DNA from: Streptomyces mobaraensis
Lineage (GTDB): Bacteria > Actinomycetota > Actinomycetes > Streptomycetales > Streptomycetaceae
DNA: 64,000 bases
Assembly (NCBI RefSeq): GCF_020099395.1
Contig: NZ_CP083590.1
Coordinates: 7,502,001 to 7,566,000 of the forward strand
Direction: 5' to 3'
The stretch's first letter is position 1; every line of letters begins with the position of its first letter. The notes under the pieces are model-generated. The model worked only from the letters and a program-made list of their open reading frames with translations. It was not told the DNA's origin and made no database searches. Both the position numbers and the translations under genes were made by a program. Positions 36,578-60,772 of this stretch are shown here, in pieces.

Positions 36578-36910
36578 GCTGCTTCCTCAGGGCCGGGTCC
36601 GGGCGGGGCCCGGCTCGGCCGGGTCCCTCACGCGGGCGAGGCGCGGGCCGGCCGCCACGAACGCGCCCGACGGGCCACGGAGCGCGGACAGCTCCGTGAT
36701 CATCCGTGATCATTCATGACCACCGGCTGTTCGACGGCCGGACGCGGACGTCCGTCGCCGCGCGGTGTGCCGGACCCGCTGCCGCGGCCCCGAGAGTGCC
36801 CCTCGGATGCACGACAGGCGGGAACACCACCCCCGGTGGGGCCTGTCGCGCAGGCCGAGGCGGGTGTCAGGGTGAAGGGACGACGGTCCCGAGGCGTCTG
36901 GAGCGGAAAC
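36578..36910. other. Intergenic region before the peptide cluster
   Basis: About 330 bases with no gene. It contains GC-rich stem-loop material near 36590-36650, a hairpin with arms CACGGAGC (36676-36683) and GCTCCGTG (36691-36698), and a direct repeat TCCGTGATCAT near 36693-36714. The hairpin probably ends upstream transcription; the repeat may be regulatory for the condensation-domain gene. Confidence 0.45.
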
Positions 36911-38215: not shown

Positions 38216-38252
38216 GGGCCGGGCGCCCGGGGCGGACGGCTCCCCGCCGTCA

Positions 38253-39326: not shown

Positions 39327-39378
39327 GACCCCCCTGCGGTATTCGAGATTTCCACCGATCGCGATCACCCTAGAGGCG

Positions 39379-39399
39379 ACCGGTCAACAACCGGTCAAC
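39379..39399. promoter_or_regulatory. Direct repeat ACCGGTCAAC in the divergent promoter
   Basis: ACCGGTCAAC occurs at 39379-39388 and 39390-39399, an 11-base period that places both on one face of the helix. The same CCGGTCAAC occurs at 36930-36938 at the start of the condensation-domain gene, and CCGGT is the core of the iterons at 40898-40943. It is a candidate site for the LuxR-type regulator. Confidence 0.55.
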
Positions 39400-39422
39400 G
39401 GCGAGCAGACGGAGCCGTCCCC

Positions 39423-40778
39423 ATGGCGGTGAGGGAGCGGGAGAGCCGCGGAGAAGGGACGGCGGACAACAGCGGGAAGAGCGCCGGGAGGCGGCCCGCG
39501 GACCGGTCCGCAAGGGGCGGACTCCTGGGCCGGAACCGGGATTTCCGGCGATTGTGGTACGCCGAGACCACGGGGAAGTTCGGTGCCGCTGTCACCGGCG
39601 TGCTGCTGCCGCTCGTCGCGGTCTCCGCCCTGCACGCGGGCACCTTCGAGGTGAGCCTGCTCACCGCCGCGACCTGGGTGCCCTGGCTCGTCATCGGCCT
39701 GCCGGCCGGAGTCTGGGTGGACCGGCTGCCGCGCAGGGCGGTCATGCTGACCGGCGACGCCGTCTCCTGCGCGGTGTTCCTGGCCGTCCCGCCGGCCCAC
39801 CGGTCCGGCGCGCTCGACGTGGGCGGGCTGCTGCTGGCCGCCCTGCTCGCCGGAACCGCCGCGGTCTTCTTCCAGACCGCGTACACCGCCTACCTTCCCG
39901 GCCTCGTCGACGCGGCGGACCAGGCCGAGGGCAACGCGAAGCTGCACGGCAGCGCCTCGGCGGCGCAGCTCGCCGGAACCGCCGCCGGCGGCCTGATCGC
40001 CCAGGTCCTCGGCGTGGTCGACGGCATGCTGACCACCGCGGCGACCTTCCTCGTGTCGTTCGTGTGCGTGTCCCGGATCCGGCACCGCGAGCCGCCGGCA
40101 CCCGTGGTCGTACGGACGCGGGGCGCCCTCTTCAAGGAGGTCGGCGAGGGCGTGCGGCTGGTGGCGCGCGACCCCTACCTACGTAGCCTCACGTGCTTCG
40201 GAGCCGCCTCGAACCTGTTCCTGGGCGGATGCCAGACGCTGCTCGTGGTCTTCCTGGTACGCGACGTCGGCATGAGCGGGACGGGGGTGGGGGTACTGGT
40301 GGCGATCGGCGGGGCGGGCGGTGTCCTGGGAGCGCTGGTGGTGCGCCGGGGAGTGGCCCGCTTCGGTACCGCACGGGCACTGCTGGTGTTCGAGCTCGGC
40401 GTACCGGCGCTCGCCCCGCTCATGGCGCTCACCACCCGGGGCGCCGGGCTGGCCCTCTTCGTCGCGGGCTACGCGTGCGCCTCGGTCGGCGTCGTGGCCG
40501 GCAACGTCATCAAGGCGGGCTTCCACCAGGCATACTGCCCGGCCGGAGTGCTCGGCAGGGTCTCCGCCTGCTCGTCGTTCCTCAACTACGGGACCCTGCC
40601 GCTGGGCGCGCTGCTCGCCGGCGGGCTGGGCACCTGGCTCGGGGTGCGCCCGACGCTGGGTCTGATGACCGCGGGCATCCCGCTGACCGCGCTGATCCTG
40701 CTGTGCTCGCCCATCCGCACCCGCCGCGACCTGCCGACACGAGGGGAGGCGGCGGGCCCGGCCGAGTGCTCCTTGTGA
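39423..40778 (+). CDS. MFS exporter (EntS/MFS_3-like)
   Basis: A 451-residue transporter. A basic N-terminus of ~50 residues precedes FRRLWYAETTGKFGAAVTGV and LPAGVWVDRLPRRAVMLTGD (motif A), followed by 12 helices. The MFS_3 branch includes the enterobactin exporter EntS and many antibiotic exporters. ATG 39423 has GGAG nine bases upstream. Its position between the C domain and the synthetase genes, divergent from the regulator, marks it as the likely exporter of the peptide. Confidence 0.86.
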   Translation: MAVRERESRGEGTADNSGKSAGRRPADRSARGGLLGRNRDFRRLWYAETTGKFGAAVTGVLLPLVAVSALHAGTFEVSLLTAATWVPWLVIGLPAGVWVDRLPRRAVMLTGDAVSCAVFLAVPPAHRSGALDVGGLLLAALLAGTAAVFFQTAYTAYLPGLVDAADQAEGNAKLHGSASAAQLAGTAAGGLIAQVLGVVDGMLTTAATFLVSFVCVSRIRHREPPAPVVVRTRGALFKEVGEGVRLVARDPYLRSLTCFGAASNLFLGGCQTLLVVFLVRDVGMSGTGVGVLVAIGGAGGVLGALVVRRGVARFGTARALLVFELGVPALAPLMALTTRGAGLALFVAGYACASVGVVAGNVIKAGFHQAYCPAGVLGRVSACSSFLNYGTLPLGALLAGGLGTWLGVRPTLGLMTAGIPLTALILLCSPIRTRRDLPTRGEAAGPAECSL

Positions 40779-40884
40779 TCGCAATCGCCCCTTTTCGCCC
40801 CCTCTCATCTATGCGACAGGCGTGAACACCAGCCCCGAACTCCCTTGGTGAGCGCGCTTTTCCGATGACAGCGTGAATCCCGCC
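40779..40884. other. Spacer downstream of the exporter
   Basis: About 105 bases with AT-richer segments (CTCATCTATGCGACAGG near 40805) and no gene. It leads into the repeat arrays upstream of the oxygenase operon. Confidence 0.3.
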
Positions 40885-40956
40885 GGCCGGTGAACGCATC
40901 CGGTCACCGAATCCGGTCTCGGCATCCGGTCTCCGGATCCGGTGACCGCGTGCGGT
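40885..40956. repeat. 13-base iterons with core ATCCGGT
   Basis: ATCCGGT begins at 40898, 40911, 40924 and 40937, exactly 13 bases apart. Degenerate copies in register lie before (GGCCGGT, 40885) and after (GTGCGGT, 40950). Spacer bases vary but share C/G at the position after the core. The period is not a multiple of three, so this is not coding. The array lies ~300 bases before the oxygenase start and may bind a regulator cooperatively. Confidence 0.75.
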
Positions 40957-40966
40957 GCTCCGGTCC

Positions 40967-41004
40967 GACGCCCGAGTCCGACGGCCGGACGCCCGAGTCC
41001 GACG
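40967..41004. repeat. 17-base direct repeat downstream of the iterons
   Basis: GACGCCCGAGTCCGACG occurs at 40967-40983 and again at 40988-41004, a 21-base period (two helical turns). It follows the iteron array directly and may be part of the same control region. Confidence 0.65.
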
Positions 41005-41080
41005 ATGCGCCGACCGGAAAGACGAGGCGCCGGCCGGAAAAAGGAATCCACCCCCGTTCCGGAAGCACGAGGAAATCCCC

Positions 41081-41152
41081 ATGCTCCTGCGCCGCATCCC
41101 GACCGTCATCCACCACGGCCCGAACGGTGGAGGGGACACCGGATGGGGATGA
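41081..41152 (+). CDS. Possible 23-residue leader peptide
   Basis: ATG 41081 has GAGGAAA seven bases upstream, better than the site of the oxygenase gene itself. The peptide is 23 residues, begins MLLRRIPTVIHHGPNG and ends GGGDTGWG. It lies between the repeat arrays and the oxygenase. It could be a regulatory leader peptide or chance. No run of one amino acid suggests classical attenuation. Confidence 0.35.
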   Translation: MLLRRIPTVIHHGPNGGGDTGWG

Positions 41153-41243
41153 CGTCCGGGACCCGGTGGCATTCGAGGAAATCCGTCAGCGACAACACGT
41201 AGCGACAACACGACAGCGTCAACACGACAGGACACGCACCACG

Positions 41244-42281
41244 ATGAGTGATTCTCCCTCCCGGACCATCGAGCCGACCATCGAGTGGACCGTCGAGACC
41301 GGAAAACCGGCCACGACCCAGGTCCCGCACTTCGCGGACGCCACCGAGGCGTGCGCCTGGCTCGCCTCGGTCCACACCGAACTACGCGCCGCACTGCACC
41401 GGCACGGCGCGCTCTACCTCCGCGGCCTGCCCGTACACGACGTCGACGACTTCGCGCGGGTACGGGACGTCCTCGTCCCGCAGCGCACGCCCTACCGCGA
41501 GAAGGCCACCCCGCGCAGCAGCTACGGCAACGACGTCTACTCCTCGACCGACCTGCCGCCGAACCAGTCGATCCGCATGCACAACGAGAACAGCTACACC
41601 CTCACCTTCCCCGGTCTGCTGCTGTTCGCCTGCCTGACGGCCCCCGAGGAGGGCGGGGCCACACCGGTCGCCGACTGCCGCGAGGTGCTGCGCCGCCTCC
41701 CCGCCGACCTGGTCGCCCGGATGCGCGCCGCCGGCTGGGTGCTGTCCCGCACCTACTCGGAACACATCTCGCTCGACTGGCGCACGGCGTTCGGCACCGA
41801 GAGCCGCGAGGACGTCGAGAAATACTGCGCGGACAACCTCATCTCCTGCGTATGGGACGCTTCCGGCGCCCTGCGCACCCGGCAACTGCGGCCCGGCATC
41901 ATCCGGCACCCCGGGACGGGCGAGGAAGTCTGGTTCAACCACATGGCCTTCTGGAACTCGTGGTCGCTGGACGAGGAACTCCGGGAGGCGCTGCTCGACG
42001 AGTTCGGCCCGGACAGCCTGCCGTTCGAGACCGCCCTCGCCGACGGGGAGCCCCTGAGCCGCGAGGACATCGAGACGATCAACGCCGCCTACGAGGCCGC
42101 GACGATGCGCCGGACCTGGCAGCCCGGCGACGTCCTGCTCGTCGACAACATCCTGGCCACGCACGGCCGCGACCCCTTCCGGGGCGACCGGCGCATCGTC
42201 GTCGCCATGGGCGACCCGGTCGGGCTCGACGCCTGCTGGCCCACCGTGGCCCCCGCCGCACGAGAGGAGCAGGCCGCGTGA
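41244..42281 (+). CDS. SyrP/TauD-like Fe(II)/2OG amino-acid beta-hydroxylase
   Basis: A 345-residue oxygenase. [19 protein letters not shown] followed by RMHNENSYT carries the HxE iron ligands (His113, Glu115) in the HNEN signature of SyrP-type hydroxylases. The distal ligand is His307 in [10 protein letters not shown] and the 2OG arginine lies in GDRRIVVAM. SyrP and KtzO/KtzP act on PCP-bound Asp or Glu. The stop overlaps the A-PCP gene start, so the likely substrate is the residue carried on that PCP. ATG 41244 has AGGA upstream. Confidence 0.87.
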
Positions 42282-44176
42282 CCGGCGTTCTCGAAGGTCC
42301 CCACAGCCCCGAGCCGGCCGTCGCCCCGGCGACGGCGTACGGCCCGTCCACACCCGTCGACCTGCTGACGCGCTTTCGGCAGGCCGTGGCGGACGACCCG
42401 TCCGGGACCGCCGTCCACGACCACGGCAGCCACCTGACCTTCGCCGAACTCGACCGGCGCACCGCCGCGACGGCGGCCGTGCTGACCGGACTGGGCGTCA
42501 CCCCCGGCGACCGGGTCGGTGTCAGCCTGCCCCGGGGCGCGGACCTCGTCGTCGCGCTGCTCGCCGTCTGGCGGGCGGGCGCGGCGTACGTCCCGATCGA
42601 CCCCGAGTACCCGCGGGAGCGGCGGCACGGCATGGTGCGCGACGCCGGAGTCCGGATCCTGCTGACCGCCGACGGCGGCGCGTGGCCGGACGGCGTACGC
42701 ACCGTCGAGCCCGGACGGACCACGGCCGACGCGGACGGCCGGATCGCAGCCGACGCGGACGGGCACCCGGCACATGTCGGAGCCGGTGGCGGCGAAGAGC
42801 CCGTGCCGGTCACCGCCCACACCCCGGCCTACGTGATCTACACCTCCGGCTCCACCGGCACCCCCAAGGGCGTCGCGACCACGCGCGGCGGTGTGGCCGC
42901 CCTGGTGGCCGGGCTGGAGGAGGCGGGCATGTACGCCGCGCGGCCCCGTGTCGTCGCCTGGAACGCCAGCGTCTCCTTCGACGCCTCGGTCCAGCAGTGG
43001 GCGCGGGTGTGCCGGGGCGACACGCTGGTCGTGCTCGGCGAGGACGAGCGCACCGACCCGGCGCGCCTGGTCGAGGCTTTGGACGCGTACGGCGTGCGGG
43101 ACCTCGACCTGACCCCCTCGCACTGGCACCTGCTCCGCGCCGACCTGCTCGTCCGCGCGGCCGAGAACCGGACGGGCGCGCTGCGGCTGTTCATGGGCGG
43201 CGAGCCGGTCCCCGAACAGACCTGGCGGGAGCTGGCGGAGGCCCGCGCCACCGGGCGGCTGGAAGCGCTGAACCTGTACGGGCCGACCGAGTGCACCGTG
43301 GACGCCACCGCGGCCTGGATCGAGGGCGGCACCCCGCACGTCGGCCGCGCGCTGACGGGCGTACGGGCGTACGTCCTGGACGCCGATCTGCGGCCGGTGG
43401 CCGACGGCACGCAGGGCGAGCTGTACCTCGCGGGACCCCAGGTGGCCCTGGGGTACGTGAACCGGCCCGCGCAGACCGCGACGCGGTTCGTCGCCGACCC
43501 CTTCGCCGCCGACGGCACCCGTATGTACCGCACCGGGGACAAGGTGCGCCGGCGCGCCGACGGGGCCCTCGACTACCTGGGCCGCATCGACCGGCAGGTC
43601 AAGATCCGGGGCTACCGCGTCGAACTGGGCGAGATCGAGGCGGCACTGGCCGGTCAGCCCGGCGTCGCCGCCGCCGCGGTCACGCTGCACCGCGGCCCGG
43701 TCGCCGGCGAGCAACTCGTCGCGTACTACGTGCCGGCGCCCGGCCCGGCGGACGAGGTCCCGACCGCCGAGACACTGCGCGGGCGGCTGGCCGGCGTACT
43801 GCCGCGGTTCATGCTGCCCACCGTCTACACCCCCCTCGACGCCCTGCCGTTGACGGTGAACGGCAAGGTCGACGTCGCCGCCCTGCCCGCCCCCGTGGAG
43901 AGCACGGAACCGGCGGCACACGAGGCGCCGGGCGACGCCCCCGAGGGCGAGGCCGAGACGCTGATCGCCGCCGTGTGGTCCGAGGTGCTCGGCCGCGAAC
44001 GCGTCGGGGCCGACGACGACTTCTTCGCCATGGGCGGCCACTCGCTGATCGCGCTGCGCGTCGTGGCCCGCCTCAAGAAACAGTTCGGGATCGCCATGTC
44101 GACCCGCGAGGTCTACCGGCATCCCCGGCTCCGGGACCTGGCCCGGCACGTCGACACCCTGCGCGCCGGAGTCTGA
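42278..44176 (+). CDS. NRPS adenylation-PCP didomain protein
   Basis: A 632-residue A-PCP protein without a C domain. The A domain shows [25 protein letters not shown] (A3), FDASVQQW (A4), [11 protein letters not shown] (A5), [13 protein letters not shown] (A7), [13 protein letters not shown] (A8) and NGKVD (A10). By motif spacing the specificity residues read D-A-Q-D-F-G-L-V-D-K, near the published Gln code DAQDLGVVDK. The PCP carries Ser589 in [12 protein letters not shown] 42278 overlaps the oxygenase stop. It probably charges Gln for hydroxylation and transfer in trans. Confidence 0.9.
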
Positions 44177-44331
44177 CCGCGGCACGGCGGAGCCTGACCG
44201 CGGCGCGCCACGCGGGGCGCGGGCCCGCCGGTCACCGCCCCGCCGCCGGACGGCACCCGTTCGAGCAGCACGAGCAGCACGAGAAGCCCAAGAAGTACGA
44301 GCAGCACAAGAAGACGAGGAAGAAAATCGCC
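44177..44331. other. Spacer with short direct repeats before the thioesterase
   Basis: A CTGACCGCGGC-containing segment is duplicated (about 44168-44185 and 44190-44208), followed by purine-rich repeats of GAGCAGCACGAG type (44260-44320). In the thioesterase frame these would encode Glu/Gln/His/Lys-rich residues, but no start codon opens that frame. The purine-rich end supplies the AGGAAG ribosome-binding site. Confidence 0.4.
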
Positions 44332-45120
44332 ATGGCCGAACGAACCCCCGGAACACAGGACACCACCGTCATCAGGGTCAACCAACGGGACGAGCACACC
44401 GCACGCACCCTCATCTGCCTGGGTTTCTGCGGCGGCGGCACCGGGCCGTACCACGCGTGGAGCGCGTGCCTCCCGGCGGACGTGGCCCTGTCGGCCGTCT
44501 GCTACCCCGGCCGCGAAGGGCGGTTCGCGGAGCCGTACGCGACGGACTGGGACGGGCTCGCGGCCGACACCACCGCCGCCGTGCTCTCCGCCGTCGACGG
44601 TCCGTACGTCCTGTTCGGCCACAGCATGGGCGGCTGGATGGCGTTCGACGTCGCGGCCCGCATCGAGCGCGCCGGCGGGCCGCTGCCGGAGACGCTGGTC
44701 GTCTCCTCGTGCAACGCCCCCGACCGCGGTCTGACGCCCCGCGACATGTTCCCCGCCCGGCAGGACACCGACGCGGCACTGCTCGACTGGATGCGCTCCA
44801 ACGGCCTGATGCCCGCGCACGTCCTGGAGGACCCCGACCTCCAGGAGATGGCGGTGGAGCTCATGCGGGCGGACATCCAGGTCCGCGACACCTTCCACTA
44901 CACGCCGGGGACCACCGTCAGCGTCCCGGTGCAGATGCTCTCGGCGACCGACGACGACGTCATCGAGCAGGACGCCGGAAACCAGTGGCGCCGGGTCGCG
45001 ACGGGGCCCTACCGCCACGACGTCCTGCCCGGAGGGCACTTCTACACCCCGGACATCTGGCGCGAACTGCCGGTCCACATCCGCGCGCTGACCGGCCCGC
45101 CGCTCGGCGCCCCCGCCTGA
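44332..45120 (+). CDS. Type II thioesterase
   Basis: A 262-residue alpha/beta hydrolase of the RifR/SrfD class. LICLGFCGGGTGPYHAW is the N-terminal loop, VCYPGREGRF is diagnostic of type II enzymes, FGHSMGGWMAF holds the nucleophile Ser and GGHFY the catalytic His. It removes aberrant acyl groups from PCPs, or, given carriers without cognate A domains, could clear misprimed PCPs. ATG 44332 follows AGGAAG. Confidence 0.92.
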   Translation: MAERTPGTQDTTVIRVNQRDEHTARTLICLGFCGGGTGPYHAWSACLPADVALSAVCYPGREGRFAEPYATDWDGLAADTTAAVLSAVDGPYVLFGHSMGGWMAFDVAARIERAGGPLPETLVVSSCNAPDRGLTPRDMFPARQDTDAALLDWMRSNGLMPAHVLEDPDLQEMAVELMRADIQVRDTFHYTPGTTVSVPVQMLSATDDDVIEQDAGNQWRRVATGPYRHDVLPGGHFYTPDIWRELPVHIRALTGPPLGAPA

Positions 45121-45191
45121 GCCCGCACGGCGCATCCCGCTCCCTCCACCTTCCCCCCCCTTCTCTCCACCCTGCCGGAAAGGACACCCCA

Positions 45192-45395
45192 GTGGTGACG
45201 AACCCCTTCGAAGACGCCGACGGGACCTACCTGGTCCTGACCAACGACAGCAATCAGCACTCCCTGTGGCCGACGCGGCTCGCACCCCCCATGGGCTGGA
45301 CCGTGGCGTACGGCGCGGCCGGCTACCAGGCCTGCCTCGACTACGTCGAAGAGCACTGGCACGACCTGACGCCGCGACCGGCCGTCGGCAAGTGA
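45192..45395 (+). CDS. MbtH-like protein
   Basis: A 67-residue MbtH family protein with the full signature: [34 protein letters not shown], and CLDYVEEHW followed by DLTPRP. These small partners bind A domains and are often required for their folding or activity. GTG 45192 (or 45195) lies seven to ten bases after GGAAAGGA. It directly precedes the large synthetase and probably serves both A domains. Confidence 0.95.
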
Positions 45396-45423
45396 ACCGG
45401 TACCGGATCCTCAAGGGGGAGTC

Positions 45424-48400
45424 ATGACGTACTCGCGGAAGACGCGGTCGGTGCGGGAAGAGCTGCTGTGCGGTCTGTTCGCCCAGGTGCTGGATGTGCC
45501 GAGCGTGGGTGTGGACGACAACTTCTTCGCCCTGGGCGGCCATTCGCTCAAGGCCGCCCAGCTGCTCAGCCGGATCCGCTCGGTGCTGGGCCTGCAGGTG
45601 GGCGTGCGGGAGCTGTTCGGCGCGCCGACCGTGGCCGGCCTGGCGGAACGACTGGCGGCACAGGCCGCGGACGGCGCGGCGGCGGCCCGGCCGGCGGTGA
45701 CGCGCCGGGTGCGGCCGGAGGTGCTGCCGCTGTCGTTCGCGCAGCAGCGGCTGTGGTTCCTCGACCGGTTCGAGCAGAGCCCCACGTACAACGCGCCCTT
45801 CGCCTTCCGTGTCCGGGGTGAGGTGGACGTGGCCGCCCTGCGGTCGGCGGTCGGCGATGTGGTGGGACGTCATGAGTCCCTGCGGACGGTGTTTCCCGCG
45901 GTCGAGGGTGAGCCCTTCCAGCGGATCCTCGCTCCCGGTGAGGCTTCGGTGGAGCTCAGGGTGGTCGAGTGTGCGGCCGAGGAGGTCACCGCGCGTTTCC
46001 ACGAGGAGGCCTTCACCCCCTTCCGGCTGGCGGATGAACTCCCGTTCAGGGTATCTCTGTTCACGACGGCCACCGACGACCACGTCCTTCTTCTGACGTT
46101 GCATCACATCGCGAGCGACGGGTGGTCGGAGGTGCCGTTGCTGCGTGATCTGTCCACCGCGTACGAGGCCCGGCGGGCCGGGGGCGTGCCGCGGTGGGAG
46201 CCCTTGCCGGTCCAGTACGGCGATTACACGCTCTGGCAGCGTGAGCTTCTGGAGGAGACGGGCAAGGAGCAGGCGGAGTTCTGGGCCGAGGCCCTGGCCG
46301 GTCTGCCGGAGGAACTGGCCCTGCCCACCGACCGCCCCCGCCCGGCACAGCCCACCCACACCGGCGGGCTCCTCCACTTCGACATCCCCGCAGCGGTCCA
46401 CACCCGCCTGGAAGCCTTGGCCCGCGCGCAGGGCGCGACGCTCTTCATGACCCTGCAAGCGGCCCTCGCGGCGCTGCTCACGAGGCTCGGCGCCGGCACC
46501 GACATTCCGCTGGGCACCGCGACCGCGGGCCGTACGGACCAGGCGCTGGACGAGCTGGTGGGGTTCTTCGTCAACACGCTCGTCCTGCGCACCGACACCT
46601 CAGGCGACCCGAGCTTCGCCGAGCTGCTGCGGCGGGTGCGAGAGGCCGATCTCGCGGCACTGGCCCACCAGGACCTGCCGTTCGAGCGGCTGGTGGAGGA
46701 GCTCAACCCGGAGCGCACCAGCGCCCGGCACCCGCTCTTCCAGACCATGTTCGTCCTGCAGAACAACGCCGAGGCCGCCCTGAACCTCCCGGGCACGACC
46801 GTCACGGCGCAGCCTCTCGACGCCGCGCCCTCCAAGTTCGACCTCGGCTGGAGCTTCACCGAACGACGGGAGGCCGGCGGCGGGCCGGCGGGGATCGCGG
46901 GCATCCTGCAGTTCGCCACCGACCTCTTCGACCACGCGACCGCCGAGACCCTCCACCGCCTCCTGGGACGCCTTCTCGACGCCGCCGCCGCGGACCCGGA
47001 GACGCCCGTCGGCTCGCTGGAGTTCTTCGAGGCGGCGGAGCAGGAACGCGCCTTGCGCGCCCGCTGCGAGGAACGCGGCCGTGCCATCGCCGAGGAAGCG
47101 GCAGCGGCGTCGGCGGCGGTCCGCGAGGAGCGGAACCCGCGGTCGGTGCAGGAAGAGCTGCTGTGCGGCCTGTTCGCCCAGGTGCTGGATGTGCCGAGCG
47201 TGGGTGTGGACGACAACTTCTTCGCCCTGGGCGGTCATTCGCTCAAGGCCACCCGGCTCATCAGCCGGATCCGCTCGGTGCTGGGCGTGGAACTGGGCGT
47301 CCGCGCGCTGTTCGGCGCGCCCACCGTGGCGGGCCTGGCCGCCTGCCTGGCCGACGGAGTGACGGCCCGGCCGGCGGTGACGCGCCGGGTGCGGCCGGAG
47401 GTGCTGCCGCTGTCGTTCGCGCAGCAGCGGCTGTGGTTCCTCGACCGGTTCGAGCAGAGCCCCACGTACAACGCGCCCTTCGCCTTCCGTGTCCGGGGTG
47501 AGGTGGACGTGGCCGCCCTGCGGTCGGCGGTCGGCGATGTGGTGGGACGTCATGAGTCCCTGCGGACGGTGTTTCCCGCGGTCGAGGGTGAGCCCTTCCA
47601 GCGGATCCTCGCTCCCGGTGAGGCTTCGGTGGAGCTCAAGGTGGTCCGGTGCGCGGCCGAGGAGGTCACCGCGCGTTTCCACGAGGAGGCCTTCACCCCC
47701 TTCCGGCTGGCGGATGAACTCCCGTTCAGGGTATCTCTGTTCACGACGGCCACCGACGACCACGTCCTTCTTCTGACGTTGCATCACATCGCGAGCGACG
47801 GGTGGTCGGAGGTGCCGTTGCTGCGTGATCTGTCCATCGCCTACGAGGCCCGGCGGGCCGGGGGCGTGCCGCGGTGGGAGCCCCTGCCGGTCCAGTACGG
47901 CGATTACACGCTCTGGCAGCGTGAGCTTCTGGAGGAGACAGGCAAGGAGCAGGCGGAGTTCTGGGCCGAGGCCCTGGCCGGTCTGCCGGAGGAACTGGCC
48001 CTGCCCACCGACCGCCCCCGCCCGGCACAGCCCACCCATGCCGGCGGACTCGTCCACTTCGACATCCCCGCCGAACTCCACACCCGCCTGGAAACCCTCG
48101 CCCGTGACCACGGCGCGACCCTCTTCATGACGCTCCAGGCCACGCTGGCCACCCTGCTCACGAGGCTCGGCGCCGGCACCGACATTCCGCTGGGCACCGC
48201 GACCGCGGGACGTACGGACCAGGCGCTGGACGAGCTGGTGGGGTTCTTCGTCAACACGCTCGTCCTGCGCACCGACACGTCCGGCGATCCCACCTTCGCG
48301 GAACTGCTACGACGGGTGCGGGAAACGGATCTCGCGGCACTGGCCCACCAGGACCTGCCGTTCGAGCGGCTGGTGGAGGAGCTCAACCCGGAGCGCACCA

Positions 48401-51400
48401 GTGCCCGGCACCCGCTCTTCCAGACCATGTTCGTCCTGCAGAACAACGCCGAGGCGACCCTGGACCTCCCCGGCACCAGCATCACGCCCCGGCAGCTCGA
48501 CGCCGCGCCCACCAAGTTCGACCTCGACTTCACCTTCGCCGAGCGGCACACGGCGGACGGCACGCCCGCGGGGCTGCGCGGCACCCTGCACTACGCGGCC
48601 GACCTCTTCGACCACGGCACCGCCACGTCCCTGACCCAGCGCTTGCTGCGTCTCGTGACCGCCGTCACCGAGGCTCCGGACACCCCCGTCGGCACGCTCG
48701 ACCTGCTGTCCCCGCAGGAGAGCAGCCGCATCCTGACCCAGTGGAACGACACCGCCCGCGCGCTGCCCGACGACCGGCTGCCGCACGAGGTCTTCGAGGA
48801 GCACGCCCGGCGCACGCCCGACGCCACGGCCCTCGTGGACGCGCACGGCCCGATGACCTTCCACGAGCTCAACAGCCGCGCCAACCGGCTGGCCTGGATG
48901 CTGATCGGCCAGGGCGTGGGCCCGGACCAGCACGTGGCCACGCTGCTGCCGCGCACGAGCGAGCACATCGTCGCCCTGCTGGCCGTGCTCAAGGCCGGCG
49001 GCTGCTACGTACCGCTGGACCCGGAGGACCCGGTCGAGCGGCTCGCCCTCATGCTGGAGGACGCGGCCCCGGCCCTGCTGCTGACCGATGTGGCGAACGA
49101 GGCCCGGATGCGGCCGCACTGCGCGCCGGACCTGCCGGTCCTGCCGGTCGACGACCCCTCCGTCCAGGCCGTCCGCATCCGTTACGCGCACGTCGACCCC
49201 GCCCGCGAGGACCGGCCCGTACGGCTGCGCCCCGACCACCTCGCCTATTCGATCTACACCTCCGGTTCGACCGGACGGCCCAAGGGCGTGGCGGTCGAGC
49301 ACCGCAGCCTGGCCAACCTGCTCCACGGCCACCTCGGCGAGGTCCACGCGGCCCAGGCGGCGGGCGGGCGGCGCATCCGGGCCGCGCTGACCGGGCCGCT
49401 GACCTTCGACTCCTCCTGGTGCCCGCTGCTGTGGCCGATGGGCGGCCACGAGCTGCACCTGATCGACGACGAGACGCGCCGCGATCCGCAGGCGCTGGCC
49501 GAGTACGTCGCGGCCGAGGCCGTCGACTACCTGGAGGTCTCACCGACGTTCTGCCGCCAACTGCTGGCCGCGGGGCTGCTGTCCGACGCGCGGCCCGCGC
49601 GGCCGCGCATCATCGAGCTCGGCGGCGAGGGCTGCGACCAGGCCCTGTGGAGCGAGCTGCGCGCCGTGCCCGGGACCGTCACCGTCAACGGCTACGGCCC
49701 GACCGAGGCCACGGTGTACGTCACGTACGCGTACGCCGCGGAGCACGAGCGGCCGGCGATCGGACGGCCGATGGGCAACAGCCGGGCGTACGTCCTGGAT
49801 CCGGGGCTGCGACCGGTTCCGGCGGGAGTGGTCGGTGAGCTCTACCTGGCGGGCGCGGGCCTGGCCCGCGGCTACGTCGGCCGGCCCGGGCTGACCGCGC
49901 GGCGGTTCGTGGCCTGCCCCTACGGTGGGCCGGGCGAGCGCATGTACCGCACCGGGGACCTGGCGCGGTGGACCGCCGACGGGGTGCTGGAGTACGTGGG
50001 GCGCGCCGACGAGCAGGTCAAGATCAGGGGCTTCCGGATCGAACCGGGCGAAGTGGAGACGGTGCTCGCCGGTCACCCGGCGGTCCGTCAGGTCGCCGTG
50101 GTCGTCCGCGAGGACCGGCCGGGCGACCGGAGGCTCGTCGCCTACACGGTCCTCGAACGGCCCGGCGACGGCCCGGCGGCGGACCCGGGCGACCGGCATG
50201 ATGACGGCCCGTCGGCAACGGACCCGGGCGACCTGCGCCGCTTCGCGGCGGCCGCACTGCCGCGCCACATGGTCCCGTCCGCCTTCGTCGTCCTCGACGC
50301 CCTGCCGCTGACCTCGCGCGGCAAGCTGGACCGGCGGTCGCTGCCGGCTCCGGGAGACGGCGCGACGGTGCGTCGCCGAGGCCCCCGGTCGGTCCGCGAG
50401 GAGCTGCTGTGCGGCCTGTTCGCGCAGGTGCTGGGCGTGCCGGAGGTCGGCGTCGACGACGACTTCTTCGCCCTGGGCGGCCATTCGATGCTCGCCGTCC
50501 GGCTGATCAGCCGGGTGCGTTCCGTGCTCGGGGCCGAACTCGACATCCGGACCCTGTTCGACGCGCCCACCGTCGCCGAACTCGGCGAACTGCTCGGTCA
50601 GGAACGGCGCGAGGACTCTCTCGCCGTCCTCCTTCCCCTGCGCAAGGCGCGCCCCACGGCACGCACGGCGGCCTCTCCCTCCACTCCCTCCACGGCCGCC
50701 GCACCCGTCCCGCTGTTCTGCGTCCACCCGGCGGCGGGCGTCAGCTGGGTGTACTCGGGACTGCTCCGCCACTTGGCGCCCGACCAACCGGTGTACGGCC
50801 TCCAGGCGCACGGCTTCACCGAGGCACACGCCGCACCGGCGAGCATGGCGGAGATGGTGGAGTCCTATCTCACGCGGATCCGCTCGGTACGGCCGCGGGG
50901 ACCCTACGCGCTGCTCGGCTGGTCCTTCGGCGGGCTCGTGGCCCACGAGATGGCCGTGCGGCTCCAGGAGGAAGGGGAGGAGGTCTCTTCCCTCGTGCTG
51001 ATGGACAGCTTCCCGCCGGCCGCCGCCGTCCCCGCCGGGGGAGAGGCGGACGAGGACGAGCTCCGGCGGGCCCTCTTCGCCTCGCTGGGACACCGGCCGG
51101 ACGCCGCCGACCCCGACGGGCCGCTCGCGCTGCTCGGCGAGCGGGCCCTCGCCGCCATGGTCCGGGTGTTCGCCCACCACGGCGCCCTCCAAGACGGCTT
51201 CGTGCCCCGGACCTTCGAGGGCGACATGCTGCTCTTCGAGGCCACCGAGGGCAAGGCCGCGGGCTCCCCCCGGGCCGACGCCTGGCGGCCGTACGTCACG
51301 GGCCGCATCGACGTCACCCCCGTCCAGGGCGCACACGGCGAGCTGACCCGCCCCGACCGGCTCGCCCACATCGGGCCGGTCCTCGCCGACCGGCTGGCCG

Positions 51401-51429
51401 GAGACCGGCGGACACCCGCACGCGGGTGA
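45424..51429 (+). CDS. Nonribosomal peptide synthetase, PCP-C-PCP-C-A-PCP-TE
   Basis: A 2001-residue synthetase. PCP1 (Ser41, [11 protein letters not shown]) begins the protein. C1 spans ~95-530 with LHHIASDGW (His227-His228, Asp232). PCP2 has Ser606. C2 spans ~655-1095 with His787-His788, Asp792. The A domain (~1110-1640) has [11 protein letters not shown] near 1278, [20 protein letters not shown] and [13 protein letters not shown]; its residues read D-S-C-E-E-G-G-V-Y-K, with no match I recognise. PCP3 has Ser1688. The TE has Ser1834 (GWSFGG), Asp1861 and His1971. PCP1 and PCP2 lack cognate A domains and must be loaded in trans or skipped. ATG 45424 follows AAGGGGGAGTC. Confidence 0.93.
45685..46356 (+). 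repeat. First copy of the near-identical C-domain segment
   Basis: This stretch is nearly base-for-base identical to 47365-48036, offset by exactly 1680 bases, with only scattered substitutions (for example at 45966-45971 and near 46157). It covers the C-domain N-terminal half including LHHIASDGW. The identity far exceeds that expected of independently evolved C domains. Confidence 0.9.
47365..48036 (+). repeat. Second copy of the near-identical C-domain segment
   Basis: This is the partner of 45685-46356. A second block of high similarity follows (46471-46770 with 48151-48450), while the donor-side segment between them and the C-terminal ends differ more. The patchwork suggests duplication of the PCP-C unit with later gene conversion. 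Confidence 0.9.
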
Positions 51430-51439
51430 CCAGACCGGC

Positions 51440-51480
51440 GCGGCCCCGCCCGGGTACCCCCATGATCGGGGCGGGGCCGC
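51440..51480. terminator. Terminator hairpin after the synthetase
   Basis: GCGGCCCCGCCC (51440-51451) and GGGCGGGGCCGC (51469-51480) form a perfect 12-base stem with a 17-base loop, ten bases after the synthetase stop. Confidence 0.75.
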
Positions 51481-51504
51481 GTCATGGCGTCGCGGCGTCA
51501 AGGT

Positions 51505-51541
51505 GGTACGGCGTGACGGTGGTACGCCGTCACGCCGTACC
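51505..51541. terminator. Second hairpin between convergent genes
   Basis: GGTACGGCGTGACGG (51505-51519) and CCGTCACGCCGTACC (51527-51541) form a perfect 15-base stem with a seven-base loop, just before the end of the convergent SARP gene. With the preceding hairpin it insulates the two genes. Confidence 0.75.
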
Positions 51542-51561
51542 GCTGCCGCGGCGTTACGGCT

Positions 51562-54500
51562 TCACGTCGTCGCAGCGTCCGCCGGCGCGGCCAGCCGCAT
51601 CTCCCGGTACAGGTCCGCGGCGCGCGCCAGATGGCCGTCCGCCTCCGCGATCCGTCCCACGGCCCGCAGGGCCTCGCCGAGCGCCTGCCGGCTGCCCGCC
51701 ATGAGCTGGTGTTCCTGGGTGAGCCGGGCCACGGCCACGGCCTCCCGGGCGTGGCCGACGGCGGCCTCCGCCTCCCCGGCCGCCAGCAGGGCCCTGGCCA
51801 GCTGGAACCGGCACTCCGCCTCGTTGCGGACGTGGTCGCTGTCCCGGGCCCGCTCCAGCGCCCGCCGGTAGAGGCGGGCGGCCGCCGCGTGGTCACCGCC
51901 GTACAACAGGCTCTCCGCCTCCGTCATGATCACCCTGATCAGCCACTTCACGTCCTCGCCGCGGGTGAAGACACCGGCCAGCTCCCGGCACCGCGCTCCG
52001 ATGGCGGCCAGGTCCACGTGCCGGCCCGGGTCCTGGACCTCGACCTGGAGCAGCACGGTGCCGCGCCGCGCGACCAGGGACCGGTCGCCGGTGGACGCCG
52101 CCAACGCGACCGACCGCTGCGCGTGGCCGCGGGCCGACGCGAAGTCCCCCAACTGCACGTCGATCTGGGCCAGCATGGCGAGGGCGAAGAGCACCACGAG
52201 GAAGGGTCGCGGACCGTCGGCGGGCCGGGGCGCGGCGCCGAAGATCTCCACCGCCTTCAGCAGGTGTTCCCGGGAGCGGCGCAGGGAACCGGGGGAGAGG
52301 TGTTTCTTGAGGGTGGTGCCCGCCGCGTAGTACGCCATGCCGACCACGCTCTCCCCGCAGTGCGCCAGGGCGGCCGGGACCAGCGCGGTGGCCGCCCGCG
52401 CCAGCCGGCCCAGGGGCAGTACCTCCTCGAAGCAGGGCACGAGGACCAGCACGTCCACGGCCAGGGCCACCGACTCGGCGTCGCCGCTGACCGCCGCCTG
52501 CTCGACGACGGCGGTGAGTTCGGGCAGCACGCGGCGGATCCACAGCATCGCCTCGCGCCCGCTGCCGACGTGCACGTCCTTGGTCCGGCGCGGGTGCAGG
52601 TCGGCGGTCAGCGGGCCGGCCAGCGGCTGGGAGGCCACGACGGCCGCGACCACCCCGGCGCACAGGAAGTCGACCGCGTTGCGCACCGCTCCGCGGCGTT
52701 CGGACGCGGACAGTCCGGTGCGGGCCTTCTCCCGCGCGTACGCCCCGACCAGGTCGTGGAAGTGGTACCGGCCCGGCGCGCCCGCCTCCAGGAGCGCGGC
52801 GTCGACCAGCGCCTCCAGGGTGCCCTCCGCGTCCTGTTCCGGCACCCGCAGGACCGCCGCGGCCGCCTGGACGCCGAACTCGGAGAAGTGCGGGATCGAC
52901 AGGGCCAGGAGCGCTCCGGCGTGCGGGGCGGAGAGCTGCGCGAACGACATCTCGAACACCGCCTCGACCGTCGTGTCGCCCACCCGCAGCTCCCTGAGCA
53001 GCCGGGCCTGGTCCGAGACCCGCTCCAGCAGCGCGGCGACGCTCCACGCGGGACGCGCCGCCAGCCGCGCGCCCGCCGCCCGCAGCGCGAGCGGCAGGGT
53101 GCCGCAGGTCGCCGCCAGCGCCGCGACGGCCTCCGGCTCCTCCTCGATCCGCCGGACCCCCGCGATCCTGCCGAGGAGTTCCACGGCCTCGTCGGCGCCC
53201 AGCCCCTTCAGCGGCACGGTGACCGTCGCCGGCATCGCGGTCAGGGAACGGCCCGTGACGAGCACGGCACACCGGCCCGCGCCCGGCAGCAGCGGTTCGA
53301 CCTGCGCCGCCGCCGTGGCGTTGTCGAGCACGACCAGGACGGCCCGCCGCGAGAGCAGGGTGCGGAAGAGCGCCGCGCGATCGGCCAGGGACACCGGTAT
53401 CCGCTCGCCGGGGACGCCCAGCGCCGTCAGGAAGCCCGCCAGGATCCCGGCCGGTTCGCCCGGGGTGCCGTCGGGGGCGCGCAGGCTCGCGTACAACTGC
53501 CCGTCCGGGTAGGACCCGGCGATCGCGTGCGCCGCCCGCAGGGCCAGCGCCGTCTTGCCGACCCCGCCCATGCCCGTGATGACGGCCACGGCGTGCGGGC
53601 CGCCGGTCGTCAGCGCGGCGACCAGTGCGGCCACCTGCTCGTGGCGTCCGGTGAAGTCGGAGGGCACGGGCGGCAGTTGGGCCGGTTCCTGGAGTCCGGA
53701 GGCGTCCGGCGGAGCGGTGGAGCCTCCCCTCCCGCCCCCGCCCCCGCCGTCGGCGGTCGGGAGGAGGAGAGTCCGGTCCCCCGCCAGGATCGCGGCGTGC
53801 AGCTCGCGCAGGGCGGGTCCGGTGTCGATGCCCAGGTCGTCGGCGAGCACCCGGCGGGCCCGGTCGTACGCCGACAGCGCTTCGGCGCCGCGCCCCGACC
53901 GGTACAGGGCCAGCATCAGCGCACCGTGCAGTCGCTCCCGATACGGGTACGCCTTGAGGGCCTGCTCGATGTCCGGCACCGCCTCCGCATGGCGCCCGCA
54001 CGTCAGCAGCAGTTCCAGGCGCAGCTCCAGCGCGGACGCGCGCTGCTCGCCCAGCGCGCGGCGCCAGTCCTGTGCGAACGGACCGGGCAGCCCCGCCAGC
54101 GCGGGGCCCTGCCACATCGCGAGCGCCTCCTCGAGGCAGGCAGTCGCCGCCTCGGGGGCGCCCGCCCCGGCGTGGCGCCGGGCCTGCGCGGTGAGCCGGC
54201 CGAAGCGCACGGCGTCCACCTGCTCCCCGGGCAGCCGGAGCACGTACCCGTCGGCCGCGGTCGCGATGAGCGCGTCCCGCCCCTCGCCGCCCGGCTCCGG
54301 GCCGTCCTCGCGCTCCAAGTGCGTGCGCAGCCGGTGGACGTAGTTGACGACGACCCGCCGGGCGGAGGCCGGCGGGTCGTCGTCGTAGAGGCCGTTGACC
54401 AGTTCGTCGACCGTCAGCATCGACCCCGCGCTCAGCGCCAGCGCCGCCAGTACGGCCTGCGGCCCGGGAGCGCCGGGCCGGCTGGCGTCCCCCCGGGCCG

Positions 54501-54573
54501 AGACGTACCGGACCGGCCCCAGTAAGCGGATGCGCACCGCCCCGCCCACCGCAGGCACCTCTGACCTCTTCAC
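51562..54573 (-). CDS. SARP-family regulator with NB-ARC and TPR domains (AfsR-like)
   Basis: A 1003-residue regulator. An OmpR-type DNA-binding domain (~15-95: VRIRLLGPVRYV, VNYVHRLRTHLE) and a bacterial transcriptional activation domain (~115-265, ending ALSAYDRARRVLADDLGID) are followed by a poly-Gly linker, an NB-ARC ATPase (~310-600: P-loop VITGMGGVGKTALAL, VLVVLDNATAA as Walker B) and C-terminal TPR-like helices. SARPs activate biosynthetic clusters at direct heptamer repeats. GTG 54573 fits the GGGAG spacing; GTG 54579 is possible. It is convergent to the synthetase and is probably the cluster activator. Confidence 0.9.
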   Translation of the reverse strand: MKRSEVPAVGGAVRIRLLGPVRYVSARGDASRPGAPGPQAVLAALALSAGSMLTVDELVNGLYDDDPPASARRVVVNYVHRLRTHLEREDGPEPGGEGRDALIATAADGYVLRLPGEQVDAVRFGRLTAQARRHAGAGAPEAATACLEEALAMWQGPALAGLPGPFAQDWRRALGEQRASALELRLELLLTCGRHAEAVPDIEQALKAYPYRERLHGALMLALYRSGRGAEALSAYDRARRVLADDLGIDTGPALRELHAAILAGDRTLLLPTADGGGGGGRGGSTAPPDASGLQEPAQLPPVPSDFTGRHEQVAALVAALTTGGPHAVAVITGMGGVGKTALALRAAHAIAGSYPDGQLYASLRAPDGTPGEPAGILAGFLTALGVPGERIPVSLADRAALFRTLLSRRAVLVVLDNATAAAQVEPLLPGAGRCAVLVTGRSLTAMPATVTVPLKGLGADEAVELLGRIAGVRRIEEEPEAVAALAATCGTLPLALRAAGARLAARPAWSVAALLERVSDQARLLRELRVGDTTVEAVFEMSFAQLSAPHAGALLALSIPHFSEFGVQAAAAVLRVPEQDAEGTLEALVDAALLEAGAPGRYHFHDLVGAYAREKARTGLSASERRGAVRNAVDFLCAGVVAAVVASQPLAGPLTADLHPRRTKDVHVGSGREAMLWIRRVLPELTAVVEQAAVSGDAESVALAVDVLVLVPCFEEVLPLGRLARAATALVPAALAHCGESVVGMAYYAAGTTLKKHLSPGSLRRSREHLLKAVEIFGAAPRPADGPRPFLVVLFALAMLAQIDVQLGDFASARGHAQRSVALAASTGDRSLVARRGTVLLQVEVQDPGRHVDLAAIGARCRELAGVFTRGEDVKWLIRVIMTEAESLLYGGDHAAAARLYRRALERARDSDHVRNEAECRFQLARALLAAGEAEAAVGHAREAVAVARLTQEHQLMAGSRQALGEALRAVGRIAEADGHLARAADLYREMRLAAPADAATT

Positions 54574-54924
54574 CCGCACGTCTCCCGTACGCCGACCTGC
54601 CGAACCTGTGGCTCTTCTGCCGGGTGATCATAGGCTGGCTGCCGGCCGAAGTCAGAGCCCGTCCCGGACGGGCTCGGACCCTCCGGCCGGCAGCCACCGA
54701 GCCCGAGGGCTCGCTCGCCCGCGCCGGAGCCGACAGCGCCCCCCGGCCGCTCGGCGGATCCGGCTTCCTCCTCCTCATCGTCGTCCCGCAGGAGCGGTCT
54801 TCGCGCTGCGCCGACGCCGTACGGACAACGAGAGCGACGACCACCCAAGAGCGAAATGGCACGTACCTTGGCACAGCACCGGCGGAGGAACTGCGGGCCG
54901 GACGACAGCCGCTGACGGAAGCGT
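54574..54924. other. Intergenic region with a sorting-signal remnant
   Basis: About 350 bases upstream of the SARP gene. In one plus-strand frame, 54693-54815 reads ATEPEGSLARAGADSAPRPL and then GGSGFLLLIV, the shape of a sortase LAxTG signal and hydrophobic helix with the Thr changed to Ala. No start or body of the surface protein remains. The SARP promoter should lie here. Confidence 0.5.
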
Positions 54925-60439: not shown

Positions 60440-60469
60440 CCGGTCATCCTGTACACGAGCGACTCAGGA

Positions 60470-60772
60470 CTACCGCTCACCGTCTGCTTCCCCGCCCGCG
60501 ATGAGGACGGGATGCGTACCGGCCGCCCCGGTGCGTGGCATGAGCGTGATGGAGACCCGCTGGGTCTGGGCCTGGGCGTACTTCCCGTCCGCCCCGGCGT
60601 CGACGACCCACAGCCGCACCTTCGCGTCCGCGCCGCTCTCCTGGCTGACGGCGACGGTCGCCTCCAGCTCCACGGGCCCGAGCTCGAACCGTACCGCTTC
60701 CCCGGCCCCGTCGGCCAGGGCCGCGCTCAGCTGCTGTCTCAACTCACCGATCATGTCGGACAGTTCGATCAC
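60470..60772 (-). CDS. Trypco2 (trypsin-co-occurring domain 2) protein
   Basis: A 100-residue single-domain protein: IELSDMIGELRQQLSAAL, then VRFELGPVELEATVAVSQE, AKVRLWVVDAG and QRVSITLMPR. This is the trypco2 pattern, a small domain found beside trypsin-like and STAND proteins. It is thought to act as an adaptor in conflict systems. GTG 60772 follows AGGGGGA. It is the first gene of a two-gene operon with the trypsin-STAND protein. Confidence 0.82.
   Translation of the reverse strand: MIELSDMIGELRQQLSAALADGAGEAVRFELGPVELEATVAVSQESGADAKVRLWVVDAGADGKYAQAQTQRVSITLMPRTGAAGTHPVLIAGGEADGER

What the first reader, a model, noticed from the sequence alone, without database searches (positions are those of the whole stretch)
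45424..51429. Synthetase with unusual order PCP-C-PCP-C-A-PCP-TE
The protein starts with a carrier and has two PCP-C units with no adenylation domain before the only A domain. Both C domains keep HHxxxDG and all three PCPs keep the GGHS serine. PCP1 and PCP2 must be loaded in trans, perhaps by the neighbouring Gln-like A-PCP or by the cis A domain acting on several carriers. This departs from collinearity and makes the product length hard to predict.
Basis: partly seen in the sequence, partly recalled or inferred. Interest (0 to 1): 0.75.

Follow-up and report, generated by a model that had tools for sequence, protein, structure and literature searches.

The report
Synthetase with variable, trans-loaded repeat units
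A Streptomyces peptide-making enzyme carries repeated units that have lost their own amino-acid selector and are most likely filled with hydroxylated glutamine by neighbouring genes, and relatives carry two or three such units, so the length of the peptide may be set by how many repeats there are.

Summary
In detail: 45424..51429 encodes PCP-C-PCP-C-A-PCP-TE with intact motifs. It is unlikely to be an assembly artefact: the same nine-gene cassette (36716..54579) recurs in relatives with different flanks. Of ten synthetases read in full, eight have two PCP-C units and two, in separate lineages, have three. C-domain bodies are alike within a genome (about 90% identity, against 75% between genomes), while carriers and C-domain tails keep positional identity: concerted evolution of a tandem array.

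Hydroxylase, A(Gln)-PCP and type II thioesterase genes recur as a set. In 38 of 38 loci with A-PCP directly after the hydroxylase the thioesterase is of this type; in 16 of 16 with A-PCP upstream it is not. At least sixteen other clusters with the set have A-less carriers, three with remnants of a lost A domain. In the main comparison A-less carriers read NFF in 32 of 32, A-linked ones in 10 of 78, with exceptions elsewhere. With the LgnA precedent, the best reading is that the thioesterase shuttles (hydroxy)Gln onto PCP1 and PCP2, and a free starter-type C domain caps the chain: acyl-(OH-Gln)n-X. Iterative loading by the cis A domain is the main rival. Nothing was tested at the bench.

The parts
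36716..38215 (+). Free-standing condensation domain of starter type (HHIVADG at aa 198); the start is uncertain, the gene caller began at 36911
   Evidence: Pfam PF00668; HHIVADG; best PDB matches 7c1h, ObiF1, CDA synthetase I and EntF; a 48.5% identical stand-alone C lies beside a relative's synthetase that begins with A-T
38253..39299 (-). LuxR-type (GerE) regulator
   Evidence: Pfam PF00196; conserved in 5 of 5 relatives compared
39312..40778 (+). MFS exporter (start uncertain)
   Evidence: Pfam PF07690; conserved in 5 of 5 relatives compared
41244..42281 (+). TauD-family Fe(II)/2-oxoglutarate dioxygenase, presumed beta-hydroxylase of carrier-bound Gln (H113-x-E115, H307, R316)
   Evidence: Pfam PF02668; HxE and HGR motifs in 45 of 45 distinct relatives, a following Arg motif in 43 of 45
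42278..44176 (+). A1-PCP didomain; specificity residues read by hand as DAQDFGLVDK (Gln or Glu)
   Evidence: Pfam; residues read from the segments printed; DAQDLGVVDK is said to recognise Glu and Gln (PMC12283262 passage)
44332..45120 (+). Type II thioesterase, proposed aminoacyl shuttle (Ser98, Asp near 207, His236, by motif)
   Evidence: Pfam PF00975; GHSxG in 39 of 39 and GGHF in 38 of 39 distinct relatives; association test
45192..45395 (+). MbtH-like protein
   Evidence: Pfam PF03621 (as part of a longer frame); conserved in 5 of 5 relatives compared
45424..51429 (+). Synthetase PCP1-C1-PCP2-C2-A2-PCP3-TE
45448..45663 (+). PCP1, A-less, [19 protein letters not shown]
45709..47058 (+). C1, elongation type (LCL-like)
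   Evidence: PDB ranking
47143..47358 (+). PCP2, A-less, [19 protein letters not shown]
47389..48738 (+). C2; body nearly identical to C1, tail different
48769..50358 (+). A2, the only A domain in cis; specificity residues read by hand as DSWEEGGVYK, substrate unknown (two acidic residues hint at a cationic side chain)
50389..50598 (+). PCP3, A-linked, [14 protein letters not shown]
50689..51393 (+). Terminal thioesterase (GWSFGG)
45435..46944 (+). Repeat copy 1 (PCP1 and most of C1)
   Evidence: 91.7% identical to 47130..48624
47130..48624 (+). Repeat copy 2 (PCP2 and most of C2)
51562..54579 (-). AfsR/SARP-type regulator, other end of the conserved cassette (an ATG start at 54420 is also possible)
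   Evidence: Pfam BTAD, NB-ARC, TPR; conserved in 5 of 5 relatives compared

Best explanation
The synthetase is an assembly line whose first two modules lack A domains and are fed in trans. A1 activates Gln (or Glu) and loads its own PCP. The TauD-type dioxygenase hydroxylates it there, probably at the beta carbon. The type II thioesterase takes the aminoacyl group onto Ser98 and passes it to PCP1 and PCP2, as LgnA does in its own pathway. The free-standing starter-type C domain acylates the residue on PCP1. C1 and C2 elongate, A2 loads an unidentified residue X on PCP3, and the TE releases acyl-(OH-Gln)2-X. In species with three PCP-C units the product would be one OH-Gln longer. Shown here: the anatomy, conservation, repeat-number variation, concerted evolution, and the associations with the thioesterase, A-less carriers and the NFF carrier signature. 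Inferred: every catalytic step, the carbon hydroxylated, the acyl cap and the product.
For: (1) Of 61 loci fetched with the hydroxylase, 38 of 38 with A1-PCP directly after the hydroxylase carry this thioesterase (48-94% identity), against 0 of 16 with A1-PCP upstream (21-28%); 4 loci had neither arrangement and 3 had only a distant hydroxylase. (2) Outside this family, at least 16 clusters with hydroxylase, A1-PCP and thioesterase have A-less carriers. Examples: one A-less PCP among at least ten modules in G307, one in G393 and two in G394, where the other modules seen have their own A, so A1 has no other evident client. (3) Three of these keep a decayed piece of an A domain between C and the A-less PCP. 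(4) Carrier signature: Asn before FFxLGGHS in 32 of 32 A-less carriers of the main comparison (20 of this family, 12 of other clusters) and 10 of 78 A-linked ones; for carriers followed by C, 29 of 29 against 5 of 44. PCP3, loaded by A2, has Asp in 9 of 9 family synthetases. In clusters fetched later, 3 of 4 clear A-less carriers fit (G393 one, G394 two, G397 not). (5) The free C domain scores with 7c1h, ObiF1, CDA synthetase I and EntF (E 3e-66 to 3e-43) far above elongation C domains (next 2e-25), while C1 does the reverse. (6) LgnA, a thioesterase with GHSxG and a canonical triad, transfers Thr from an A-T didomain to an A-less T (PMC8748450, abstract, passages and discussion).
Against: PCP1 and PCP2 are 71-74% identical to PCP3, which A2 loads, but only 33% to the PCP of A1, so loading by A2 is easy to imagine; direct loading by A1 looks unlikely, and everything rests on the shuttle. 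The NFF signature fails in G397 (Gly), and 13 A-less rows set aside by hand before the count read D 6, N 3, G 2, S 2; among them are carriers of set-bearing clusters (G353, L098, G351: Asp). With them the count is 35 of 45 against 10 of 78. The sequences are related, so the p-values are too small. G396 has the set but no synthetase in the 80 kb read around it. The thioesterase could be a plain editing enzyme: after 7e3z its nearest PDB matches are 6vap and the hydrolase RifR. No LgnA, WS20 or RthD sequence was compared.
Confidence: 0.62

Rival explanations
1. A2 works iteratively: it loads PCP1, PCP2 and PCP3 with the same residue X, so the synthetase makes X-X-X, and A1-PCP with the hydroxylase supplies a separate unit that the free C domain joins to the chain (OH-Gln-X-X-X).
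For: PCP1, PCP2 and PCP3 are alike (71-83%) and unlike the PCP of A1 (33-34%). One A loading several carriers is known: capreomycin CmnA-A1 loads CmnI (PMC12400406, passages), mannopeptimycin (PMC8949500, passages), yersiniabactin (PMC7539972, passages). The count of three C domains and four carriers would close without remainder.
Against: In the other clusters with the same hydroxylase, A1-PCP and thioesterase, the A-less carriers sit between modules with various A domains. PCP1/2 carry the NFF signature of those A-less carriers and PCP3 does not. The free C domain ranks with starter-type C domains.
Confidence: 0.2
2. Mixed use: only one of the A-less carriers is loaded by the thioesterase route (for example PCP2), the other serves as a passive transfer station or is skipped, so the product holds a single OH-Gln.
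For: Skipping of T and C domains has been proposed for locillomycin, whose NRPS begins T-C-T-C-A-T (PMC8949500 passages). PCP1 and PCP2 differ consistently in helix 2 (AAQLL against ATRL in 9 of 9 family synthetases).
Against: Both carriers keep the NFF signature and GGHS, and the C domains of the array keep HHxxxDG in all nine family synthetases checked; the array has three units in two lineages with all these motifs intact, which is unexpected for idle units.
Confidence: 0.13
3. The thioesterase is an ordinary editing hydrolase, and A1 or the A1-bound PCP passes Gln directly to PCP1/PCP2 without a shuttle.
For: The thioesterase has the canonical GHSxG motif and resembles RifR. A-T complementation without a named shuttle is described for albicidin, ramoplanin and enduracidin (PMC8949500 passages).
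Against: Strict co-occurrence of this thioesterase type with A1-PCP placed directly after the hydroxylase, and its absence where A1-PCP lies upstream. PCP1/2 are only 33% identical to the PCP that A1 normally serves.
Confidence: 0.05

Closest known systems
Legonindolizidine LgnA-LgnB-LgnD (thioesterase-mediated trans-aminoacylation; PMC8748450, abstract, passages and discussion read)
   Same: Free A-T didomain, stand-alone type II thioesterase with GHSxG, A-less T in the main synthetase
   Different: Thr instead of Gln; an A-less C-T unit rather than an N-terminal array of T-C repeats; no hydroxylase and no repeat-number variation in what I read
WS9326A and rotihibin trans A-T systems (WS5/WS20 with WS22/WS23; RthB/RthD) (PMC8748450 discussion, PMC8552735 passages, PMC7539972 passages)
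   Same: A-less C-T module fed by free A-T with a proposed thioesterase shuttle; RthB proposed to act twice
   Different: Thr and Asn units, larger lines, a single A-less module
Capreomycin CmnA-A1/CmnI (PMC12400406, passages)
   Same: A T-C unit without A, loaded by an A domain elsewhere
   Different: Loading is by an A domain of another module, no shuttle thioesterase
Locillomycin synthetase [T-C-T-C-A-T-C] (PMC8949500, passages)
   Same: The same order T-C-T-C-A-T
   Different: Described there as part of a PKS-NRPS lipopeptide line with skipped domains; no hydroxylase/A-T/thioesterase set mentioned in the passages read
Lipopeptins (contain hydroxy-Gln; PMC10172682, passages)
   Same: A Streptomyces peptide with a hydroxylated Gln
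   Different: Octapeptide with one HyGln; its gene cluster was still to be identified in that paper, so no link could be tested

Membership tests
LgnA-type thioesterase-mediated trans-aminoacylation | Free-standing A-T didomain | tested here: met
   42278..44176 is A-PCP with no C domain
LgnA-type thioesterase-mediated trans-aminoacylation | Stand-alone type II thioesterase with GHSxG and Ser-Asp-His | tested here: met
   44332..45120, Ser98 and His236 by motif, Asp near 207 by motif only
LgnA-type thioesterase-mediated trans-aminoacylation | A-less T domain in the main synthetase | tested here: met
   PCP1 and PCP2
LgnA-type thioesterase-mediated trans-aminoacylation | Thioesterase falls in the LgnA/WS20/RthD clade | not tested
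   No LgnA, WS20 or RthD sequence was fetched; the paper reports under 30% identity of LgnA with WS5, WS20 and RthD
LgnA-type thioesterase-mediated trans-aminoacylation | Aminoacyl transfer between T domains shown | not testable with these tools
   needs holo proteins and intact-protein mass spectrometry
Iterative or trans-acting A domain (capreomycin, yersiniabactin type) | The A domain of another module loads the A-less T without a shuttle | tested here: inconclusive
   PCP1/2 resemble PCP3, but carry the A-less signature
Starter condensation domain | Sequence nearest to acylating first-module C domains and intact HHxxxDG | tested here: met
   PDB ranking with C1 as the opposite control; HHIVADG; that these PDB entries are first-module, acylating domains is recalled
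Starter condensation domain | Uses an acyl-CoA or acyl carrier donor | not testable with these tools
   none of the nine cassette genes matched an acyl carrier alone or an acyl-AMP ligase
Fe(II)/2-oxoglutarate amino-acid hydroxylase | His-x-Asp/Glu...His...Arg | tested here: met
   H113, E115, H307, R316; HxE and HGR in 45 of 45 distinct relatives, a following Arg motif in 43 of 45

The most novel reading that the evidence does not exclude
The synthetase is a length-variable array of A-less carrier-condensation repeats, kept alike by gene conversion and fed by one shared loading set, so that the length of a hydroxyglutamine oligomer can change by recombination between repeats alone, with no new adenylation domain.
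Probability: 0.5. Interest if true: 0.72.

Novelty: new variant of a known kind. Interest (0 to 1): 0.57.

Why it matters
In the precedents read here, A-less modules are mostly single oddities. Here they form a tandem array whose copy number differs between close relatives (two or three) while the rest of the cassette stays the same. That makes a natural experiment on whether peptide length follows repeat number when one A domain and one shuttle serve several carriers. It also gives a sequence mark (NFF) for carriers that are probably loaded in trans, which could improve product prediction, and shows A-less modules with remnants of a lost A domain. If the loading rule holds, the unit (hydroxylase, A1-PCP, thioesterase, PCP-C) would be a ready-made way to add hydroxyglutamine residues one at a time.

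Tried and rejected
Assembly artefact: rejected as unlikely, because the copies differ and the kind of order recurs in 9 further synthetases read in full. Plasmid origin of the repeat: one megablast of 45424..47200 against the plasmid collection gave partial matches in 17 records, at most 28% of the query covered in the 5 listed. Independent duplication in each species: disfavoured, because PCP position signatures (AAQLL for PCP1, ATRL for PCP2 in 9 of 9) and C-domain tails keep positional identity.

Substrate of A2: not solved. PDB search gave only general A-domain similarity, and one survey of codes held neither DSWE nor DSCE in its main text (its supplementary tables were not seen). Product identity: not found. 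Ten full-text searches were made: hydroxyglutamine + Streptomyces + nonribosomal, six spellings of hydroxyglutamine, PCP-C-PCP-C, T-C-T-C + adenylation domain, the shuttle searches, 7E3Z and concerted evolution. They gave precedents but no report of this cluster in the listings. PDB 7e3z, the best match of the thioesterase, could not be tied to a pathway.

Mistakes corrected: the first hydroxylase alignment had three rows on the wrong strand (redone). The window free C domain was read in a wrong frame (redone). The code columns 299 and 301 are off by one residue and column 239 is misaligned for many rows; codes were re-read by hand. In one search four carriers at contig edges or behind an interrupted A domain (L104, G256, L070, L073) were relabelled A-linked by hand, and 13 A-less rows were set aside by hand.
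Full report
Observation. The ORF 45424..51429 encodes 2001 aa. Pfam and local profiles give PCP-C-PCP-C-A-PCP-TE. All three carriers keep GGHS, both C domains keep HHIASDG, and the A and TE core motifs are present. The two PCP-C units are a tandem repeat, 91.7% identical in DNA over about 1.5 kb.

Surroundings. From the hydroxylase on, five genes run close together on the plus strand: hydroxylase (TauD), A1-PCP, type II thioesterase, MbtH, synthetase. Upstream lie a free-standing C domain, a LuxR-type regulator (minus strand) and an MFS exporter; downstream a SARP/AfsR regulator on the minus strand. Compared gene by gene with five relatives (40-55 kb each), all nine genes from the free C domain to the SARP are conserved in order (61-93% identity). 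None of the 12 called genes listed on the left from 28291 on has a match. Of the 5 called genes on the right, one has a single match in one genome. So the cassette is 36716..54579, nine genes, with no tailoring gene besides the hydroxylase.

Distribution. A hydroxylase search of 392 genomes of the genus gave six with at least 79% identity (the window's own included), and all six hold the whole cassette. Further copies come from named records: Streptosporangium nondiastaticum as titled (L059; NCBI places it in another order), S. netropsis (L061), S. olivoreticuli ATCC 31159 (L063) and Streptomyces sp. MspMP-M5 (L064). Three more are cut by contig ends (L060, L062, L065). G241 corresponds to S. 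roseoverticillatus (L114) and G349 to S. pinistramenti (L066), by matching contig lengths; the genus name Streptomyces for the window rests on that. Ten family synthetases could be read in full (L059 by tblastn hits only). Eight have two PCP-C units; G137 (2570 residues from stop to stop) and S. olivoreticuli have three.

Evolution of the array. In codon alignments of seven of the eight two-unit synthetases (L059 was not included), the C-domain body (all but the last 60 codons) is 90.2% identical within a genome. It is 75.3% between genomes at the same position and 75.0% at the other position. In the last 60 codons the order reverses: 66.0% within a genome, 76.0% same position, 65.4% other position. 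In a DNA tree of C domains the copies group by genome in 7 of 9 genomes; G294 and G064 group by position instead. PCP1 keeps AAQLL and PCP2 keeps ATRL in 9 of 9. This fits an ancestral duplication followed by gene conversion confined to the body of C. On a tree of A2, thioesterase, A1 and hydroxylase, G137 pairs with L064 (n=2) and L063 with L061 (n=2), both with support 1.0, so repeat number changed at least twice. The extra unit of G137 has a C1-like tail and a carrier identical to PCP2 over the 72 residues compared, whereas that of L063 has a different tail.

What loads PCP1 and PCP2. The hydroxylase occurs in many other actinobacterial clusters. Of 61 loci, 3 had only distant hydroxylases and 4 had neither arrangement. 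In 38 the A1-PCP directly follows the hydroxylase, and all 38 carry a thioesterase of the window's type (48-94%; the lowest, L070, is broken into several frames). In 16 the A1-PCP lies upstream of the hydroxylase, and none does; the nearby thioesterase is only 21-28% identical. In the clusters of the second kind that were annotated (L079, L085, L090, G025; some cut by the locus end), A1-PCP follows an ORF ending in C, as if in line, and no A-less carrier was seen. The 16 look like one group of related clusters and are not independent. In contrast, at least 16 clusters outside this family with the set hold A-less carriers: G042, G258, G060, G307, L103, L104, G143, G256, G194, G137 (second locus), G393, G394, L067, G397, G353, L098. 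G221 and G351 have the set and A-less carriers in other settings and were not counted. G396 has the set but no synthetase in the 80 kb read around it. Others are cut by contig ends and were not counted. Three keep a decayed A-domain piece between C and the A-less carrier (G307, G143, and G256, which is the same locus as G403), so A domains were lost from ordinary modules there. The A1 code reads DAQD or DSQD with VDK wherever it is complete. The window's own linkers keep no such piece.

A carrier signature. The residue before FFxLGGHS is Asn in 20 of 20 A-less carriers of this family and 12 of 12 of other clusters, against 10 of 78 A-linked carriers. Restricting to carriers followed by a C domain gives 29 of 29 against 5 of 44. 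I had set aside 13 further A-less rows by hand (stand-alone carriers, or carriers in other contexts: D 6, N 3, G 2, S 2); including them the count is 35 of 45. Clusters fetched afterwards gave 1 of 1 in G393, 2 of 2 in G394 and 0 of 1 in G397; G398 (the same locus as L098, already set aside) has Asp, and G405 has Gly at a contig edge where an A domain may be cut off. The rows are related and not independent, so this is a correlation, not a proof. In the window PCP1 and PCP2 have Asn and PCP3 has Asp.

Precedent. LgnA, a type II thioesterase with a canonical Ser-Asp-His triad, was shown to move Thr from the T domain of a free A-T didomain to an A-less T (PMC8748450; abstract, passages and discussion read). 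The same is proposed for WS9326A and rotihibin. The window's thioesterase keeps GHSMG and the His motif. PCP1 and PCP2 are only 33% identical to the PCP of A1, which argues against direct loading by A1 and for an adaptor, or for A2.

Chain start. The free C domain scores far better with 7c1h, ObiF1, CDA synthetase I and EntF than with elongation domains, and C1 shows the reverse order. That these structures are acylating, first-module C domains is recalled. A 48.5% identical stand-alone C domain lies beside the G393 synthetase, whose first module begins with A-T. A trans-acting starter C domain is therefore the likely partner of a line that begins with a bare carrier.

Mechanism and rivals. 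The best reading is acyl-(OH-Gln)n-X with n equal to the number of A-less units, at confidence 0.62. The main rival is iterative loading by A2 (0.20), which the likeness of PCP1, PCP2 and PCP3 favours. Every catalytic step is inferred. The identity of X, the acyl group, the hydroxylated carbon and the product are unknown. No report of this cluster appeared in the listings of ten full-text searches of the held library.

Verdict. The architecture is real and conserved. The principle (A-less modules fed in trans) is known. The N-terminal array of such units with changing copy number and concerted evolution, tied to a hydroxylase, A-PCP and thioesterase set with a carrier signature, is a new variant.

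Noticed in passing
window 6027..11422: Separate operon-like group: PhyH-type dioxygenase, DUF6271 protein, PLP-dependent decarboxylase-like protein and GNAT acetyltransferase, then a gene that looks like a membrane transporter by eye (not scanned); possibly another small biosynthetic cluster.
   Followed up: partly
window 56264..60772 (minus strand): Trypsin-like peptidase fused to a NACHT-type NTPase (1391 aa) next to a 100-aa Trypco2 (trypsin-co-occurring domain 2) protein.
   Followed up: partly
window 35847..36386: TetR-type regulator preceded by six KKATTA repeats in the reading frame.
   Followed up: no
L072 and G396 C14 95-175 kb (S. netropsis): MbtH, hydroxylase, A(Gln)-PCP and shuttle-type thioesterase present without any NRPS synthetase found in the 80 kb read.
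   Followed up: no
L109 (S. eurocidicus) and L112 (S. albireticuli): Hydroxylase homologue (63-64%) directly beside a 68-70% SARP homologue but without A1-PCP or thioesterase; looks like a reduced relative of the cassette.
   Followed up: no
G307, G143, G256/G403 synthetases: Decayed A-domain fragments of about 90-100 aa remain between C and the A-less carrier.
   Followed up: yes
L079, L083, L085, L088, L090-L097, L099, L102, L115, L119: A second type of cluster in which the same hydroxylase lies downstream of the A(Gln)-PCP, which seems to work in line, without the shuttle-type thioesterase.
   Followed up: partly
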